Origin: Myxococcaceae bacterium JPH2
GTDB taxonomy: Bacteria > Myxococcota > Myxococcia > Myxococcales > Myxococcaceae
Length of the DNA stretch: 64,000 nt
Direction: 5' to 3'
NCBI GenBank assembly: GCA_016458225.1
Contig: JAEMGR010000017.1
Location: 62,001-126,000 of the forward strand
Every line of letters starts with the position of its first letter. The stretch's first letter is position 1. The notes under the pieces are model-generated. The model was not told the DNA's origin, did no database searches, and was given only the letters and a program-made list of their open reading frames with translations. A program made the translations under genes and the position numbers. This document shows, in pieces, positions 47,655-54,835 of the stretch.

Positions 47655-48532
47655 AGGGAATCGTCCTCGCGGGGGGCTCGGGCACGCGCCTGTACCCGCT
47701 GACGCGCGTGGTGAGCAAGCAGCTGCTGCCCGTACACGACAAGCCGATGATCTACTACCCGGTGTCCACGCTGATGCTGGCGGGCATCCGGGAGCTGCTC
47801 ATCATCTCCACGCCGCAGGACCTGCCGCGCTTCCGCGAGCTGTTGGGGGACGGCTCTCAGTGGGGCGTGTCCTTTCAGTACGCCGAGCAGCCGCGACCGG
47901 AAGGTCTGGCGCAGGCGTTCGTGATTGGGCGCGACTTCGTCGGGAAGGATCCGGTGTCGCTCATCCTGGGCGACAACATCTTCTACGGGCACGGCCTGAG
48001 CGAGCAGGTGCAGCGCGCGGCGCGGCGGGCCTCGGGCGCGACGGTGTTCGGGTACTACGTGAAGGATCCGGAGCGCTACGGCGTGGTGGAGCTGGATGCC
48101 CAGCAGCGCGCGCTGAGCATCGAGGAGAAGCCGGTCCGGCCCAAGTCGAACTACGCCGTCACGGGCTTGTACTTCTATGACAACCAGGTGGTGGAGATCG
48201 CCCGCGACCTGAAGCCGAGCCGCCGAGGCGAGCTGGAGATCACCGACGTCAACGCGGAGTACATGCGTCGGGGCCAGCTCACCGTGGAGTTGATGGGGCG
48301 CGGGTATGCGTGGCTGGACACGGGCACGCATGAGTCGCTCATGCAGGCGTCCAACTTCATCCAGATCATCGAGCAGCGGCAGGGCCTGAAGGTGGCGTGC
48401 CTGGAAGAGATTGCCTTTCGCATGGGGTACATCGACGCGGCGCAGCTCGCCCGTCTGGCCGAGCCCATGCGAAAGAACGAGTACGGCCAGTACCTGCTGG
48501 CGCTCAGCGAGAATCGAGGAGCGGTGTCGTGA
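47651..48532 (+). CDS. rfbA: glucose-1-phosphate thymidylyltransferase
   Basis: 293 residues. It makes dTDP-glucose from dTTP and glucose 1-phosphate, the first step of the pathway. The nucleotide-binding motif [55 protein letters not shown] and [13 protein letters not shown] are all present. The start is the ATG at 47651, overlapping the rfbD stop. It overlaps rfbC by four bases (GTGA). Confidence 0.95.
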
Positions 48533-49080
48533 AGGTGATTCCCACCGAGCTTCCCGGAGTGTTGCTCCTGGAGCCGAAGGTGTTTGGCGATGACCGGGGC
48601 TTCTTCCTGGAGACGTTCCACGCGGGCCGCTACGCGGACGCGGGCATCCCGGGGCCCTTCGTGCAGGACAACCTGTCGCGCTCGGTGAAGGGCACGCTGC
48701 GCGGGCTGCACTTCCAGGAGCCGCAGGCGCAGGGGAAGCTGGTGCAGGTCCTCGCGGGCGCGGTGTGGGACGTGGCCGTGGACATCCGCCGAGGCTCGCC
48801 GCACTTCGGCCAGTGGATGGCGGTGGAGCTGTCCGCGGACAACAAGCGCCAGCTCTGGGTGCCTCCGGGCTTCGCGCACGGCTTCTGCGTGCTGAGCGAC
48901 TCGGCGGACTTCTCTTACAAGTGCACGGCGCTGTATGCGCCGAACTGCGAGCACGGCATCGCGTGGAATGATCCGGACCTGGGCATTCCCTGGCCGGTGA
49001 ATCCGCCGCTCCTGTCGCCCAAGGATGCTCGGGCGCCTCGGCTGAAGGATGCTCCGTTGCTGCCGGTGTTCGCGGGCTGA
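48529..49080 (+). CDS. rfbC: dTDP-4-dehydrorhamnose 3,5-epimerase
   Basis: 183 residues, a cupin-fold Rml[34 protein letters not shown] (with the catalytic His) and [14 protein letters not shown] are intact. It epimerises the 4-keto sugar to the L-configuration. The GTG start overlaps the rfbA stop. It closes the dTDP-rhamnose set and is convergent with the kinase gene 11 bases away. Note that wzm-wzt-wbgA are sometimes also called rfbABC in myxobacteria, so symbols can confuse. Confidence 0.93.
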
Positions 49081-49091
49081 GTGACTGCCTC

Positions 49092-51026
49092 TCAGGGAGC
49101 GATCTCGGGAGGCAGGTCGGCCTTGCAGCGCGAGATGGCGGACTGGGCATCGCGCGCCTTGGGGAACAGCTTCAGGACCTCGCGATACGTGCGGATGGCG
49201 GACTCGCAGGCTCCATCGCGGGCCTGGGTGTTGCCTCGGTTCATCAGCGCGGTGGCCTTCGAGACGTTCGCGCGCAGCTCCTCCAGTCGAGGCTCCGCCG
49301 CCGCCAGCTCCGGCGCGCTGTCGAGGATGGCCTGCGCATCGCCCAGCTTGCCTGTGGCCAGCTCGAGGTTGGCGCGGAAGAGCAGCTCACGCGCCTGACG
49401 TTGTTCATCAGGTGTCGCGGGGCTCGGAGGTCGGGGCACGGCGTCCGTAGGCGGTGGAGCGGAGTCCGTTCCTGCGCCGACCACGGGCGTCGCGATGGCG
49501 GGTACCGTTCCGGTCGGGGGCGCGGCAGTCCCATCTGGAGTCGGTGATTCGGTTCCCGCCGAGGGCGGTGCGGCGCCGCTCGGGGTTGTCGCGCCCACCG
49601 AGGGTGCTGTCCCGCCAGTGGCGCCGAGCGCGGGCTGCTGTGGGGACGTAGCGCCGCTTCCTTCCGCTGGAGGGGTGCGCAGATGCACGACGCCCAGTCC
49701 CGCGGCCATCATGATGCCGCCCACCACGATTGCGCTCAGCAGACCGCTCCGTCGGTTCGAGGGCGCGGCGTACGGCGATGCCGGCAGCGCGGTCTTGTCC
49801 AAGCCGTCGGAGAGGGGACGCGCGCCAGGCGCAGGCTGGGGGAGCGAACTCGGCGCTGCGGGCGTGGCAGCCGTTACTGGCTGCGTGCGCGCAGCGGGCG
49901 TTGCACCTGGCGCGGGCTGGGTGAGTTGAATGGGCACCGCGGGCGTGGCGGCGGCGGGCGTGGCGCCTCGAATGAGCGTGGCCTCGGTGCCGTCTCCGTA
50001 GAGGAGGGTGCCGGGGGCCTGGGGCGCAGCGGGCGCGCCTCCTGGAACCGGAGTGAGGCTGAGCGCGGAGCGCCCCGTCAGCGTGGGCAGCGCGTTGCTC
50101 AGGTCCGAGGCGAAGGCCTCCATCGTCGCGTAGCGCTCGACCCGATTCTTCGCGGTGGCCTTCTGGATGACGGTGTCGAGCGCGGGCAGTTGAAGATCCG
50201 GGCAGAGGTCCGCCAGCCGGGGCATGGGCTGGTGCACCTGCTTCTGCATGATCTCCGGGATGGTGGTCCCATCGAAGGGCTGCCGGCCGGTGAGCATCTC
50301 GAACAGGACGATGCCCACCGCGTACACGTCCGCGCGCGCGTCGGCGTCCAGGCCCAGCACCTGCTCCGGTGCCATGTAGCGAGGCGTCCCCGCCACCGCG
50401 CCTTGCACCGTGAGGCGCGGCGCGCCGTCCGCGATGCGTGCGATGCCAAAGTCGAGCACCTTCACATGGAAGCCGCGCAGTCCCTGGCGGACCATGATGT
50501 TCTCGGGCTTGAGGTCGCGGTGGATGACCTGTCGCGCGTGCGCATACGCGAGCACGTCCGCGACCTGGAGCATGATGTCGCCCGCTTCGTGCGCGGGCCG
50601 CCGCCCCGCCGCGTGCAGCAAGCGCTTGAGGTCGTCTCCCTCCACGTACTCCATGGAGATGTAGAGGCCGCCTTCCTCGTCCTGACCGAAGTCGTGCAGC
50701 ATCACCGCGTTGGGGTGCGCCACGCGCGCGTAGCTCTTGGCCTCGTTGAGGAAGCGCCGCGCTACATCCGGATCCATGGACAGGCCGCTGTTGAGGAACT
50801 TGAGCGCCACCTGCTGGCCAATGCCCACCTGCTCGGCCAGATAGACGGAGCCCATGCCGCCCTGGCCCAGCCGCCGCAGGATGCGATAGCGCCCGGCCAC
50901 CACGCGGCCCGGCATCCGGTCCTCGGTGGGCGTGAGCGTGAGCAGCTGGGTGCCGCCGCATGCAGGGCAGGCGCCGTTCCAGGTGTCGTGCTGGGCCTCG
51001 CAGCGCTGGCAGATGTGGATGGCCAT
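49092..51026 (-). CDS. Ser/Thr protein kinase with N-terminal zinc ribbon
   Basis: 644 residues. Starting at ATG 51026, residues 5-24 form a zinc ribbon (CQRC and CPAC pairs). A Hanks-type kinase domain follows at about 45-310 (LGQGGMGSVYLAEQ, VALKFL, VIHRDLKPENIM, VLDFGIA, GTPRYMAPEQ). A proline/alanine-rich linker, one membrane helix (SAIVVGGIMMAAGLGVVHL, about 430-450) and a periplasmic helical/TPR-like C-terminus complete it. It is the third gene of a unit after a PEGA/barrel protein and a TPR protein. FHA proteins at 1-4.5 kb are possible readers of its phosphorylation, though they are far away. Confidence 0.9.
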   Translation of the reverse strand: MAIHICQRCEAQHDTWNGACPACGGTQLLTLTPTEDRMPGRVVAGRYRILRRLGQGGMGSVYLAEQVGIGQQVALKFLNSGLSMDPDVARRFLNEAKSYARVAHPNAVMLHDFGQDEEGGLYISMEYVEGDDLKRLLHAAGRRPAHEAGDIMLQVADVLAYAHARQVIHRDLKPENIMVRQGLRGFHVKVLDFGIARIADGAPRLTVQGAVAGTPRYMAPEQVLGLDADARADVYAVGIVLFEMLTGRQPFDGTTIPEIMQKQVHQPMPRLADLCPDLQLPALDTVIQKATAKNRVERYATMEAFASDLSNALPTLTGRSALSLTPVPGGAPAAPQAPGTLLYGDGTEATLIRGATPAAATPAVPIQLTQPAPGATPAARTQPVTAATPAAPSSLPQPAPGARPLSDGLDKTALPASPYAAPSNRRSGLLSAIVVGGIMMAAGLGVVHLRTPPAEGSGATSPQQPALGATGGTAPSVGATTPSGAAPPSAGTESPTPDGTAAPPTGTVPAIATPVVGAGTDSAPPPTDAVPRPPSPATPDEQRQARELLFRANLELATGKLGDAQAILDSAPELAAAEPRLEELRANVSKATALMNRGNTQARDGACESAIRTYREVLKLFPKARDAQSAISRCKADLPPEIAP

Positions 51027-51042
51027 GTCCGGGCGCGCCTCG

Positions 51043-52032
51043 TCAGCGGGTGGGGGCGGTGGCGTAGCGCTGGAAGAGCAGTCGCTCCAGCTCACGCGCA
51101 CCGGCTTCGGGTGACTGCGACTGCGCCGTCGCCGCGCGCAGCACGTCCGTGCGCGAGTCCTGTGGCAGCTCCGCCTCCATCACCGCGAGCGCGCCCGGCA
51201 GGTCTCCCGCCTGCTGGAGCGCGGAGGCGCGCCACACGCGGTACTCGGGACGCGAGGGCGCCGCCGCGGCGGCCTGGGCGAACAGGGCCTGGGCCTTGCG
51301 CGCATCTCCCGCGCGCAGCGCCCCCTGTCCCTCCAGGAACGGGAGCTGAGAGGCCGCCTGGGCCGCGGGCTCGCCCGTATCTCGCGCGAGGTCGAACAGT
51401 GCGCGGGCCTCGCGCAGCCGCTCGGGCTCCACGGCCTCTCCCGCGAGCGCGTTGCCATGGAGCGTCTCGGTGGCCGCTCGACACGCGGCGCTCAACCGAC
51501 TCCCCATCTCTCCGAGGTCCACGCCCAGGTAGCCCTGCGACACGAGCGTGGTCAGCAGATCTCCCGCCGAGCCGGTCCCCACGAGCTTGCCCGCCTCCAG
51601 CGCGGTGAAGAACGCGGACTTCAGCTCCACGTGGCGCGCGGTGAGATCGGCCGGTGCCTTCTTCTTGCGGTACGCCGCCTTGAACTGCCGCTCACACAGC
51701 TCCAGCTCGCGCTTGGCCTTGCCTCGGTCCTGGATGTCCGGAGCGCTGCGAAGATAGGCGCGATACGCGACGCACGCGCCCGCCACGTCCTTCGCCCCGA
51801 GCCGCGAGCGCGCCAGTCCCAAGTAGGCCGGCAGCGTGGCGGGGCTGGCGCGGGTGGCCTGGAGGAACAGGCGCGAGGACTCCGCATACTTCTTCTTGTT
51901 GTAGAGCCGCTGGCCCTCGGCCACGAGCCCGTCGCCATTGCCCACCGAGGGGCCGACCAATGGCTCCGCGAGGCTCGCGGTGGACAGCGCGAGGACAGCG
52001 AGGAGACACACGCGGCGCAGGTCAGAACGCAT
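51043..52032 (-). CDS. periplasmic TPR-like protein
   Basis: 329 residues. A signal peptide (LLAVLALSTASLA) precedes helical repeats: EGQRLYNKKKYAESSRLFLQA near residue 38, then AYLGLARSRLGAKDVAGACV and, later, ALQQAGDLPGALAVMEAEL. The C-terminus is unremarkable. It overlaps the PEGA gene by 11 bases and precedes the kinase gene by 16, so the three are one transcriptional unit. As a periplasmic scaffold it could bridge the barrel protein and the kinase's outer domain; this is inference. Confidence 0.78.
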   Translation of the reverse strand: MRSDLRRVCLLAVLALSTASLAEPLVGPSVGNGDGLVAEGQRLYNKKKYAESSRLFLQATRASPATLPAYLGLARSRLGAKDVAGACVAYRAYLRSAPDIQDRGKAKRELELCERQFKAAYRKKKAPADLTARHVELKSAFFTALEAGKLVGTGSAGDLLTTLVSQGYLGVDLGEMGSRLSAACRAATETLHGNALAGEAVEPERLREARALFDLARDTGEPAAQAASQLPFLEGQGALRAGDARKAQALFAQAAAAAPSRPEYRVWRASALQQAGDLPGALAVMEAELPQDSRTDVLRAATAQSQSPEAGARELERLLFQRYATAPTR

Positions 52033-53560
52033 AGCCGAATCCTCCGCGGAAGTTGCTGGTGCCCGAGATGTTCTTCGTCAGCGAGAAGCTGTGCTGGTAC
52101 CCGGCGGAGGCGTAGAGCCCCTCGTAGAGGAACACGCGCAAGGTGGCCTGCCCCATGGCGTGCACGTCCAGCGTGTAGAGCCCGTCGGAGAAGAGCTGTC
52201 CTTCTCCGCGCTCCTTGAGCAGCACGCCTTGCAGCTCCAGTCCCGCCTGCGCGGACAGGGCCACGGGGCCGAGCACCCATCGCAGCTGCGGCTGGAGCGC
52301 GCGCACGCGCAGGAACTGCGCCTTCACGTCCAACGCGCCGCGGCTCTTCACCGCGTCCACGCTCTCGCCGGTGGCCTCGTCTGGCACCGTGACGCCCAGG
52401 GTCCACGTGTCGCCGGTGGTGTAGTAGCTGCCGCCCACCAGCATCACGCCGAAGAACTTCCCGTAGCGCCCGTACTCGAGCCCGAACCCCTGGACGCGCT
52501 GCCGGCCCGGCGCGCGCACGTCCTGGGTGCGGAAGGACTTGAGCGGATCCGGCGAGTTGACCGGGCGCGTCTCCACGGAGGAACCGGTGAGGCGGTTCGC
52601 TTCGAGGGAGACCTCCAGGTAACTCTTCAAGTCGTACGTGGCTTCCTGCCGCGCGCGCATGGCGAGCTTGAAGGACTGGAACCCCGTCGGCTTCAGGGCC
52701 TGCTCCAGGGTGAAGGTCTCTCCTGGCTGGATGACGGCTTGGACTTCGTGGGGCAGGTAGCCCTCCTGCGCCAGCGTGAGCGTGTGAGTCCCTGGCTGGA
52801 TGCCCTGGTCCACCGCGTTGGTGCCCACGCGCTGTCCGTCCACGAGGATCTCGGTGCCCACGGGCGCGGCCTTCACCACCAGCCGCGCGGGAACCTTCTC
52901 CAGCGCGCGCTCGACCTTCACCTTCTCGCGCGAGCCCACCTGTCGCGTGACCTCCCAGGGCAGGTGCGACGCGAGTTCAAAGCGGAAGGTGTGCTCGCCC
53001 GGGAGCAGCTCGGCGGTGAAGGGGCTGGTGCCCACCTTCACGCCGTCGATGAAGACGGTGGCGCCCGAGGGCTGACTCACCGCTTCCACGGTCGCGTTGA
53101 TGGAGAGGAACTTCACCAGCGCGCCCGCGAGCGCTTTCTCGAAGACGGGGTTGGCGGCCTCGGCTTGCGTGCGCGCGCCGGTGTCCGTGCGCACGCTGAC
53201 GGCGCGGAAGCGATAGCCCGCGTCATCCTGTCCGCCTTGCACCAGCACCACGCGCTCGATGCCGAGCGAGGCGACGTAGGTCTCGAAGGGCTCGCGGCAG
53301 CGCGTCGTGCTGGAGACGCAGCGCAGATCGCCGCGTCGTCCTTTGAGCCAGGTGGTCAGCGCGTCGCGTCCCACGCGCTGCGCGTCGCGCGTTTCGGGAG
53401 GGAGCAGGGCGGTGATGCCGGACTCGGTGCGCTGCACGAGCGCGTCTTGTCCGGGATAGAGCGGTTGCACGAGCCACACCGTGGCGGGCTCGGCGGGGGA
53501 GCTGGGCGTGGCGCCAGCAGCAAGCGCCAGGCTGACCGTCAGGAGGCATGAGACGAACAT
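52022..53560 (-). CDS. PEGA-domain protein with C-terminal beta-barrel
   Basis: 512 residues from ATG 53560, preceded by GAGGA. Signal peptide (FVSCLLTVSLALAAGA); a domain of unknown type (about 20-165); two clear PEGA domains (QPSGATVFIDGVKVGTSPFT and PVGTEILVDGQRVGTNAVDQ, each followed by GxHT-type strands); and a C-terminal set of alternating strands ending in Gly-Tyr-Ala-Phe. The terminal Phe is the usual outer-membrane barrel signal. It is thus likely an outer-membrane protein with periplasmic PEGA modules. It is the first gene of the three-gene unit and lies divergent from the YihY gene. Confidence 0.8.
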   Translation of the reverse strand: MFVSCLLTVSLALAAGATPSSPAEPATVWLVQPLYPGQDALVQRTESGITALLPPETRDAQRVGRDALTTWLKGRRGDLRCVSSTTRCREPFETYVASLGIERVVLVQGGQDDAGYRFRAVSVRTDTGARTQAEAANPVFEKALAGALVKFLSINATVEAVSQPSGATVFIDGVKVGTSPFTAELLPGEHTFRFELASHLPWEVTRQVGSREKVKVERALEKVPARLVVKAAPVGTEILVDGQRVGTNAVDQGIQPGTHTLTLAQEGYLPHEVQAVIQPGETFTLEQALKPTGFQSFKLAMRARQEATYDLKSYLEVSLEANRLTGSSVETRPVNSPDPLKSFRTQDVRAPGRQRVQGFGLEYGRYGKFFGVMLVGGSYYTTGDTWTLGVTVPDEATGESVDAVKSRGALDVKAQFLRVRALQPQLRWVLGPVALSAQAGLELQGVLLKERGEGQLFSDGLYTLDVHAMGQATLRVFLYEGLYASAGYQHSFSLTKNISGTSNFRGGFGYAF

Positions 53561-53641
53561 GGCGTCCTCTTCAGAAGACACTTCAGACAGGGAGGCTTCG
53601 AGCCCCAGGCCACCGTCCCCCCACCAGGGTCTAACGTCCAA

Positions 53642-53672
53642 GCACGGCACCCTGCCTAGGGGAGCACCGTGC
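53642..53672. repeat. inverted repeat in the PEGA-YihY divergent spacer
   Basis: GCACGG (53642-53647) and CCGTGC (53667-53672) flank 19 bases that include a CCTAGG palindrome. It lies within the 261-base spacer between divergent genes. It could be an operator; nothing else in the spacer stands out. Confidence 0.25.
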
Positions 53673-53821
53673 GCATGGCACCTTCCTGGGAGGGATAACA
53701 TGTTTTGCTTTGCGGGTGGCACGGTGGGCCGGCGACCGGGCGGCCGGGGGCTCGGGGCCGAGGGGGCAGACTGAGCGGCGGGTGATGCCCATGCTCTTCC
53801 AGGTCACTCGGAGGAGGCCCC

Positions 53822-54835
53822 ATGGTCCTGCCCGGCAAGGGAATCGGGTGGAAGTCATTCCTCGTGGAACTCAAGAACGAGTGGACACGGGACAATGTCA
53901 GCGACGTCGCGGGCTCTCTGACGTTCCGCGGCATCCTGGCCCTCTTTCCGTTCCTCCTGTTCCTGGTCTCGCTCGCGGGGGTGCTCATTGACCCGCATCA
54001 AGCCCAGACACTCATCCATGAGCTGTCACGGGTGGCGCCCAAGGAGGTGACGGCCATTCTCAGCCAGCGCATCCAGTCGCTCGCGGACAGCAATCCGGTG
54101 GGGCTCTTGACGGTGGGAGGCGTGGGCGCGGTGTGGGCGGCGTCCGGCGGGATCTCCGCGTTGATGACGGCGCTGAACACGGCCTATGGCGTGCGGGAGA
54201 CGCGGCCCCTTTGGAAGACGCGAGGCATCGCGGTGACGACGACGCTGGTCACCGCGCTCGTGGCCATCCTCGCGGCGGCGGTGGCGGTGGCGACCCCCGC
54301 TCTCGCGGGCAAGCTGGGGGGGCGAGCGGAGTCCGTGGTGCTGTGGCTGCGCCTGCCGGTCGCGGGCGTGCTGATGATGTTCCTGTGGGCGGTGCTGTAT
54401 CACGTGCTGCCCAACGTGACGCAGCGCTTCCGCCTCATCACCCCGGGCTCGGTGGTGGGCGTGCTCATCTGGATCCTCGCCTCGTGGGGGTTCTCCACGT
54501 ACGTGGCCAACTTCGGCAAATACGACGTGAACTATGGCGCCATTGGTGGCGTCATCGTGTTGCTGCTGTGGATGTGGATCTCCGCGCAGGTCGTGCTGTT
54601 GGGCGCGGAGATCAACGCCATCCTCGACAGGCCCTCGCAGGAGTCTGGGAGCCCCGCCACGCCCCGCTCGAATCCGCGGACGCCTGTCACGGAGCCGCCC
54701 CAGGACGGCCGCGTCCCGGACGAGCCCGAGCCGCACCCCGTCGCCCTCGCGCGGACTCCGCTGGCCGCGGCGGCGAAGTGGGTGACGGGTCTGGGAGTGG
54801 GTCTGTTCCTGTTCCGGCGGGGAGCGAGCCGCTGA
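53822..54835 (+). CDS. YihY/BrkB-family membrane protein
   Basis: 337 residues with six or so membrane helices. The family hallmarks are visible: AGSLTFRGILALFPFLLFLV, a conserved-looking VWAASGGISALMTALNTAYG, VLYHVLPNV and GGVIVLLLWMWISAQVVLLGAEINA. It was long called ribonuclease BN by error; the true function is unknown, possibly transport. A proline-rich C-terminal tail ends in a short hydrophobic stretch. The gene starts ATG 53822 after GGAGG at 53811-53815. Confidence 0.86.
   Translation: MVLPGKGIGWKSFLVELKNEWTRDNVSDVAGSLTFRGILALFPFLLFLVSLAGVLIDPHQAQTLIHELSRVAPKEVTAILSQRIQSLADSNPVGLLTVGGVGAVWAASGGISALMTALNTAYGVRETRPLWKTRGIAVTTTLVTALVAILAAAVAVATPALAGKLGGRAESVVLWLRLPVAGVLMMFLWAVLYHVLPNVTQRFRLITPGSVVGVLIWILASWGFSTYVANFGKYDVNYGAIGGVIVLLLWMWISAQVVLLGAEINAILDRPSQESGSPATPRSNPRTPVTEPPQDGRVPDEPEPHPVALARTPLAAAAKWVTGLGVGLFLFRRGASR

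What the first reader, a model, noticed from the sequence alone, without database searches (positions are those of the whole stretch)
49092..53560. PEGA/barrel, TPR and zinc-ribbon kinase cassette
Three minus-strand genes overlapping or 16 bases apart encode an outer-membrane-type PEGA/barrel protein, a periplasmic TPR protein and a transmembrane Ser/Thr kinase with a cytoplasmic zinc ribbon and periplasmic tail. Together they could carry a signal from the surface across periplasm and inner membrane into phosphorylation. I do not recognise a described system with this composition.
Basis: partly seen in the sequence, partly recalled or inferred. Interest (0 to 1): 0.55.

Follow-up and report, generated by a model that had tools for sequence, protein, structure and literature searches.

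The report
Envelope-spanning three-gene Ser/Thr kinase cassette
Three neighbouring genes in a myxobacterium encode an outer-membrane barrel protein, a periplasmic adaptor and an inner-membrane protein kinase that are mostly kept or lost together across relatives, so they probably form one sensor that tells the cell interior about the state of its outer surface.

Summary
Minus-strand genes A (52022-53560: alpha/beta domain, two PEGA, predicted 8-stranded OmpA-like barrel), B (51043-52032: secreted TPR protein) and C (49092-51026: zinc ribbon, intact Ser/Thr kinase, one TM, TPR-like tail) form a conserved unit of the order Myxococcales. In 195 genomes of the phylum B and C occur in the same 51. 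A is in 48 of these; in the other 3, B lies at a contig end. One further genome has A alone. A-B-C is contiguous in 32 of 35 loci read; an 11-nt A/B overlap is kept in 32 of 35. In five relatives read without the cassette, rmlC or rmlD abuts brkB. One Cys pair is invariant in A (35 of 35), in B (35 of 35) and in C's tail (30 of 30), as expected of periplasmic parts. Deeper relatives extend the operon with an Fpg gene and an LpxL-type acyltransferase. 16 of 29 other PEGA frames of this genome hold a kinase domain. Best reading: a split, envelope-spanning receptor kinase, working like TagQRST-PpkA but built of other parts. Contacts, signal and substrate are inferred.

The parts
52022..53560 (-). 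Gene A: PEGA/outer-membrane barrel protein, 512 aa, ATG, signal-like N-terminus, ends in GFGYAF
53105..53482 (-). A residues 27-152: N-terminal alpha/beta domain with invariant Cys81 and Cys88
   Evidence: model; Cys in 35 of 35
52685..53095 (-). A residues 156-292: two PEGA repeats
   Evidence: Pfam PEGA, two stretches; strands 156-288 in the model
52025..52624 (-). A residues 313-512: predicted 8-stranded beta-barrel with aromatic C-terminus
   Evidence: OmpA 1qjp Z 12.8, OmpW 8qxp Z 12.9
52022..52032 (-). 11-nt overlap of A stop and B start
   Evidence: an ATG at this place in 32 of 35 loci
51043..52032 (-). Gene B: secreted TPR protein, 329 aa, invariant Cys87 and Cys113
49092..51026 (-). 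Gene C: transmembrane Ser/Thr kinase, 644 aa, ATG at 51026
50958..51011 (-). C residues 6-23: CxxC...CxxC zinc ribbon, LapB/rubredoxin type
   Evidence: four Cys in 30 of 30; Zn_ribbon_LapB in 21 of 23 at E<=0.1
50169..50888 (-). C residues 47-286: Ser/Thr kinase domain; K76, E95, HRD 169-171, DFG 192-194 invariant
49686..49742 (-). C residues 429-447: single hydrophobic (transmembrane) segment
   Evidence: one such segment in 23 of 23 homologues scanned
49125..49376 (-). C residues 551-634: weakly TPR-like tail with invariant Cys607 and Cys634
48529..49080 (+). Flank: rmlC, convergent with C; one edge of the empty site in relatives without the cassette
53822..54835 (+). Flank: BrkB family protein, divergent from A; other edge of the empty site

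Best explanation
A-B-C is one functional unit: a receptor Ser/Thr kinase whose sensing half is spread over separate proteins so that it spans the whole envelope. A sits in the outer membrane by an 8-stranded barrel and exposes an alpha/beta domain and two PEGA domains to the periplasm. B is a periplasmic TPR adaptor, its gene overlapping that of A. C is an inner-membrane kinase with a short TPR-like periplasmic tail. A change in the outer membrane or its LPS alters A, B carries this to C's tail, and C changes its dimerisation or autophosphorylation and phosphorylates unknown cytoplasmic targets through a kinase domain preceded by a zinc ribbon. Shown by sequence: gene order, overlap, co-inheritance, domain make-up, intact catalytic residues, Cys pairs. 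Inferred: topology (from prediction), translational coupling, A-B-C contact, the outer-membrane/LPS signal, direction of signalling, and the targets.
For: Co-occurrence: of 195 phylum genomes, B and C at E<=1e-115 (threshold set, after the single-sequence scores) are found in the same 51; A in 48 of these, the other 3 having B at a contig end. In G019 the kinase lies on another contig than A-B, yet all three are kept. Contiguity: A-B-C in 32 of 35 loci read. 11-nt A/B overlap in 32 of 35. Empty site: rmlC and brkB matches 122-149 nt apart in 4 genomes of two genera, rmlD and brkB 115 nt apart in a fifth, while brkB itself is in 10 of 10 genomes searched, nine of them without the cassette. Cys pairs invariant in A (35 of 35), B (35 of 35), C tail (30 of 30). 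Fusions: 16 of 29 other PEGA frames of this genome hold a kinase domain, 15 of the 16 with a hydrophobic segment after it; one is kinase-PEGA-TPR in one chain. Envelope context: a lipid A acyltransferase gene downstream of C in 18 of 20 readable loci outside the window's own lineage. Precedents: TagQRST-PpkA senses outer-membrane damage through an OM lipoprotein, a periplasmic protein and an inner-membrane kinase (PMC11881912, passages); truncated PknS without its periplasmic TPR region does not complement (PMC13147305, passages).
Against: No contact between the proteins was tested; comparing profiles of C's tail and B gave only weak, generic TPR similarity. G161 has A without B or C, so A can exist alone. 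In G155 the one kinase above threshold is on another contig and scores like a paralogue. The Fpg gene at the operon's head in deeper relatives is a DNA repair gene and does not fit an envelope story. C's tail is the least conserved part (mean pairwise difference 0.71), unlike a tightly fixed interface. The A model rests on a shallow alignment (pTM 0.45). The genomes are related, so the counts are not independent events.
Confidence: 0.5

Rival explanations
1. A and B form a structural or maintenance device of the outer membrane (barrel plus periplasmic TPR partner), and C regulates that device or co-expressed envelope steps such as lipid A acylation by phosphorylation. The kinase is then the controller or a co-regulated neighbour, and A-B is not its sensor.
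For: A-B is the tightest pair: it stays together where C is elsewhere (G019, G155). A alone is found in G161. A lipid A acyltransferase gene in deeper relatives and the rml genes in the window's lineage lie next to it.
Against: B and C are in exactly the same 51 of 195 genomes. Kinase-PEGA frames in the same genome put PEGA on the sensing side of kinases.
Confidence: 0.3
2. The three genes are an operon of envelope proteins inherited together without physical or functional contact; the kinase senses something else with its own tail.
For: Myxobacterial genomes hold very many kinase candidates (over 100 in the first look in most of the genomes listed), so a kinase beside envelope genes is easy to get; no interaction was tested.
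Against: Retention of all three when split over contigs (G019), and joint absence of all three with the flanks left intact.
Confidence: 0.12
3. The cassette is a contact or damage sensor that triggers a defensive or predatory response, as TagQRST-PpkA triggers the H1-T6SS.
For: Same layout as the Tag system (PMC11881912, passages); Myxococcus is a predator (recalled).
Against: The immediate neighbours identified are rml, brkB, fpg and acyltransferase genes, none of a secretion system; other neighbours were not annotated and the genomes were not searched for secretion systems.
Confidence: 0.15

Closest known systems
TagQRST-PpkA threonine phosphorylation pathway (Pseudomonas aeruginosa H1-T6SS)
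   Same: An outer-membrane component, a periplasmic component and an inner-membrane Ser/Thr kinase relay an outer-membrane signal inward (PMC11881912, passages).
   Different: TagQ is a lipoprotein, not a PEGA barrel. A P. aeruginosa kinase with a von Willebrand domain is listed in PMC1262709 (passage); that it is PpkA is recalled. C has a TPR-like tail and a zinc ribbon instead. The Tag system includes the ABC pair TagS/TagT and a T6SS; the genes flanking this cassette in the window are rmlC and brkB.
PknS of Xanthomonas citri
   Same: Cytoplasmic kinase, one TM helix, periplasmic TPR region (PMC13147305, passages).
   Different: PknS has an 83-aa N-terminal extension, three TPRs and a sigma-factor target; the words PEGA, TagQ and outer membrane do not occur in that paper's main text.
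PEGA-tailed Ser/Thr kinases of the same genome (e.g. G000:C23, L203)
   Same: Kinase, TM, PEGA and TPR modules, here in one chain.
   Different: One protein instead of three; no barrel; no zinc ribbon among the Pfam hits at E<=0.001.
OmpA/OmpW-type 8-stranded barrels
   Same: A's C-terminal domain has this predicted fold.
   Different: A carries an alpha/beta domain and two PEGA repeats before the barrel; OmpA has a peptidoglycan-binding domain after it (recalled).
LapB zinc ribbon (rubredoxin type)
   Same: C's N-terminal CxxC pairs match Zn_ribbon_LapB in 21 of 23 at E<=0.1.
   Different: LapB joins this ribbon to TPRs in the cytoplasm (recalled); here it precedes a kinase domain.

Membership tests
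TagQRST-PpkA pathway | Outer-membrane lipoprotein component | tested here: not met
   A has a predicted barrel; the only Cys columns conserved are the internal pair 81/88, no conserved lipobox Cys
TagQRST-PpkA pathway | Kinase with periplasmic von Willebrand domain | tested here: not met
   window C: 13 Pfam families at E<=0.1, none VWA; among 23 homologues no VWA in the 25 families shown of 30
TagQRST-PpkA pathway | TagS/TagT ABC pair and T6SS genes in the cluster | not tested
   direct flanks in the window are rmlC and brkB; other neighbours were clustered but mostly not annotated, and no genome was searched for these genes
TagQRST-PpkA pathway | Outer-membrane signal activates the kinase | not testable with these tools
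   needs experiment
Hanks-type Ser/Thr kinase | Pkinase domain with catalytic Lys, HRD and DFG | tested here: met
   Pkinase in 23 of 23; K76, HRD, DFG invariant
PASTA kinase (NF033483) | Whole-protein score above 450 bits | tested here: not met
   304.1 bits, match ends with the kinase domain
PknS-like receptor kinase | Kinase, one TM, periplasmic TPR | tested here: met
   one TM in 23 of 23; TPR weak: TPR_16 in 12 of 23, best 2e-04; TPR_19 in 8, best 1.1e-05
PknS-like receptor kinase | Partner ECF sigma factor | not tested
   genome not searched for it
PEGA domain family (PF08308) | Score above the curated cut-off | tested here: met
   71.4 bits against 20.8, two stretches; a PEGA match in 25 of 25 homologues
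OmpA/OmpW-type barrel | Eight-stranded transmembrane barrel | tested here: met
   eight strands in the model, Z 12.8 to 1qjp; prediction only

The most novel reading that the evidence does not exclude
An integral outer-membrane beta-barrel with PEGA domains is the receptor of a eukaryotic-like Ser/Thr kinase: barrel, periplasmic TPR relay and kinase together form a trans-envelope receptor complex, old within the order Myxococcales, kept in Myxococcus and close relatives and absent as a block in others. It would be the distributed counterpart of the one-chain kinase-PEGA-TPR receptor found in the same genome.
Probability: 0.42. Interest if true: 0.7.

Novelty: new variant of a known kind. Interest (0 to 1): 0.5.

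Why it matters
Myxobacteria hold very many Ser/Thr kinases (recalled; one search lists over 100 first-look candidates in most genomes shown), and for most the signal is unknown (recalled). This cassette names a concrete candidate receptor and relay for one of them, in a tractable genus (Myxococcus), and makes outer-membrane-to-kinase signalling testable by deleting three genes. It would add a second, unrelated design to the Tag-PpkA way of sensing the outer membrane. The kinase-PEGA frames suggest that the same parts are widely used as kinase sensors.

Tried and rejected
Homology between C's tail and B: both have a Cys pair 26-27 residues apart in TPR-like sequence, which suggested a shared stapled module; profile comparison aligned only generic TPR positions and not the cysteines, so this was dropped.

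A gap in L039: an earlier search missed the kinase domain there; it is present.

Chance neighbourhood: rejected on co-occurrence, joint absence and the conserved overlap. In the five relatives of the empty-site comparison the absence is not an assembly gap, since the flanks lie next to each other on one contig. In one genome each of g15, g8 and g12, 5.1-7.1 kb of other sequence lies between rmlC and brkB, with no A, B or C match at E<=1e-10.

A second cassette of this make-up in the own genome: 13 of the 29 other PEGA frames lack a kinase domain; I put 11 loci with 12 of these 13 through a simple gene caller and saw no barrel-TPR-kinase set (only profile hits to A, B and the kinase were looked for). 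L213 (kinase gene, then PEGA gene) and L215 (PEGA, Cys-rich and kinase genes) are partial parallels. Standalone acyltransferase homologues (8 of 8 genomes) were not pursued.

Fold searches: that for A tested residues 302-512 mainly; the N-terminal alpha/beta domain has no assigned fold here. B gave only generic TPR matches, Z near 10. A solved-structure sequence search with A found nothing at E<=1. A consensus scan of 48900-53850 found no promoter or terminator.

Literature: nine answered searches of open-licence papers listed no paper on this cassette; subscription papers are not covered, so absence from print is not shown. Locus tags of Myxococcus xanthus DK1622 were not found.

Dropped rows: alignments A2, A3, A4 used 25 (A), 27 (B) and 23 (C) of the 32, 32 and 31 genes listed, leaving out near-identical rows, contig-cut rows and rows with a doubtful start. 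One search repeated the Cys count on 35, 35 and 30 sequences, leaving out C of L044, L054 and L060 (cut) and the separate kinases of G019 and G155. The distance comparison used the 19 loci present in all three alignments. Of 55 genomes matched, 6 match only the PEGA repeats and were not counted.
Full report
WHAT IS THERE. The window lies in a 9.0-Mb genome of the same genus as Citreicoccus inhibens, whose A is 95% identical. On the minus strand are A (52022-53560), B (51043-52032) and C (49092-51026). A and B overlap by 11 nt, B and C are 16 nt apart. A has PEGA repeats at 71.4 bits (cut-off 20.8); B has TPR_16 at 1.9e-08; C has Pkinase at 9.7e-50.

ANATOMY. A: the predicted model (12 sequences, mean pLDDT 74.9, pTM 0.45) shows an alpha/beta domain (27-152), two PEGA sandwiches (156-288) and eight long strands (313-511). 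The strands align with the OmpA transmembrane domain (Z 12.8, 132 residues, 2.4 A) and OmpW (Z 12.9, 160 residues, 3.9 A). 34 of 35 A homologues end in Gly-Tyr-Ala/Gly-Phe; L062 has one residue more. B: a hydrophobic signal-like N-terminus and an all-helical model, mean pLDDT 76.2. C: invariant CxxC pairs at 6/9 and 20/23 (30 of 30), matched by Zn_ribbon_LapB in 21 of 23 homologues at E<=0.1; invariant K76, E95, HRD 169-171 and DFG 192-194; one hydrophobic segment in 23 of 23; a tail with weak TPR matches (TPR_16 in 12 of 23).

CYSTEINES. Each extracytoplasmic part has one invariant Cys pair: A 81/88 in 35 of 35, B 87/113 in 35 of 35, C tail 607/634 in 30 of 30; no further column outside the zinc ribbon reached 60% Cys. 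This fits disulphides in the periplasm and supports the topology, but does not prove it.

CONSERVATION. A was sought by profile in 195 genomes of the phylum: 55 match at E<=1e-20, of which 6 match only the PEGA repeats (E about 1e-21 to 1e-23) and are not counted; 49 are taken as relatives (46 of the family, 3 of other families of the order). B: 51. C, ribbon plus kinase domain at E<=1e-115, a threshold chosen before but after the single-sequence scores: 51. The B and C lists name the same 51 genomes. A is missing in three of these (G056, G059, G156), where B runs into a contig end. G161 has A alone. So, at these thresholds, 48 have all three, 3 have B and C with A unseen, 1 has A only and 143 have none. 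The genomes are related, so these are not independent counts. In the family sample of 76 genomes A is in 34 and B in 36, in the same 13 of 26 genera.

GENE ORDER. 35 loci with A were read: A-B-C are same-strand neighbours in 32 (C is cut by a contig or locus end in L044, L054 and L060). Exceptions: G019 (A-B on one contig, C with an acyltransferase gene on another), G155 (A-B; the kinase found is on another contig, E 3e-130, where a second kinase of G157 scores 1.7e-136), G161 (A alone). An ATG that overlaps A's end by 11 nt is present in 32 of 35. Some named loci are the same genomes as some G handles, so the loci are not all distinct species. Pairwise distances of A, B and the kinase domain agree (Spearman 0.87-0.91 over 19 loci; A and B with the tail 0.71-0.75), as inheritance as a block would give.

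EMPTY SITE. In the window's lineage (window and 11 named loci) A is divergent from a BrkB gene in 12 of 12. In four genomes read of genera g26 and g16, without A, B and C, the rmlC and brkB matches are 122-149 nt apart, and in one of g9 rmlD and brkB are 115 nt apart. In one genome each of g15, g8 and g12, 5.1-7.1 kb of other sequence lies there, without A, B or C. BrkB is in 10 of 10 genomes searched, nine of them without the cassette. The cassette is thus present or absent as a block at this site. Since deeper relatives carry it beside other genes, loss after a move and transfer into this site are both open.

OLDER OPERON. In 20 of 20 deeper loci of the family (L046-L065) a formamidopyrimidine-DNA glycosylase gene precedes A on the same strand (18 within 85 nt), and a lipid A acyltransferase gene (Lip_A_acyltrans 1.3e-51 for the member scanned) follows C in 18 of 20 loci where this can be read (17 of L046-L065 plus L124, L126, L127), 16 directly and 2 after two small genes. 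The two without are L048 and L051 (only 0.9 kb visible). The acyltransferase gene also follows C in G019, where C is apart from A-B. This points to the outer membrane or its LPS; the glycosylase does not fit and is unexplained.

FUSIONS. The own genome has 36 PEGA matches in 30 open frames; of the 29 frames other than A, 16 carry a kinase domain, and in 15 of these a hydrophobic segment follows the kinase domain. These are stop-to-stop frames, not checked gene models. The one at G000:C23 has Pkinase, a hydrophobic segment, PEGA (4.3e-10) and TPR_16 (2.5e-06, below Pfam's own cut-off) in one chain. So PEGA and TPR modules serve as the outer half of kinases here; the cassette spreads similar modules over three proteins and adds a barrel.

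HOW IT MOST LIKELY WORKS. A change at the outer membrane is felt by A, B relays it, and C's tail receives it; C then phosphorylates cytoplasmic targets. Shown: gene unit, domains, catalytic residues. Inferred: location of A, contacts, signal, direction, targets. I give 0.5 to this whole reading, and hold the narrower claim that the three are one functional unit to be clearly likelier.

COMPARED WITH THE KNOWN. In P. aeruginosa TagQ (outer-membrane lipoprotein), TagR (periplasm) and PpkA (inner-membrane kinase) sense outer-membrane damage (PMC11881912, passages seen). This cassette works alike if the reading is right, but it is not a member: no lipoprotein and no von Willebrand domain were found; TagS/TagT and T6SS genes were not searched for. 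PknS of X. citri has a periplasmic TPR region that is needed in vivo (PMC13147305, passages). A 2005 survey lists TPR kinases in several bacteria and does not hold the word PEGA (PMC1262709, passages). Nine answered paper searches listed no description of this set. Hence: new variant of a known kind.

Noticed in passing
L041 (BNCN01000007.1): A record titled Comamonas sp. KCTC 72670 carries the cassette at 64% identity in A; its contig length (519574) equals that of a contig of G041, genus g23, which also holds the contigs of named Myxococcus loci, so the name looks wrong.
   Followed up: no
G000:C23:28000-35500 (L203): One protein with kinase, TM, PEGA and TPR: a one-chain receptor kinase with modules like those of the cassette.
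   Followed up: partly
G000:C41 (L005, L214): A kinase-like protein with two PEGA repeats has HGD in place of HRD and no DFG: probably a pseudokinase receptor.
   Followed up: no
G019:C339:1-8000 (L125): A zinc-ribbon kinase paralogue (56% identity) is divergent from two PEGA genes, with one small gene between: a second pairing of the same parts.
   Followed up: partly
L215 and L213 (own genome): PEGA, Cys-rich and kinase genes on one strand (L215), and a kinase gene followed by a separate PEGA gene (L213): other split kinase/PEGA sets.
   Followed up: no
window:54918-58250: Protein with six chitobiase C-terminal-type repeats beside the cassette; as called, its relatives vary from about 650 to 1593 aa, L041 and L044 have more than one, and none was called in L037, L042 and L045.
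   Followed up: no
L046-L065: A DNA glycosylase (Fpg) gene heads the operon in 20 of 20 deeper loci; why a DNA repair gene is kept there is unexplained.
   Followed up: partly
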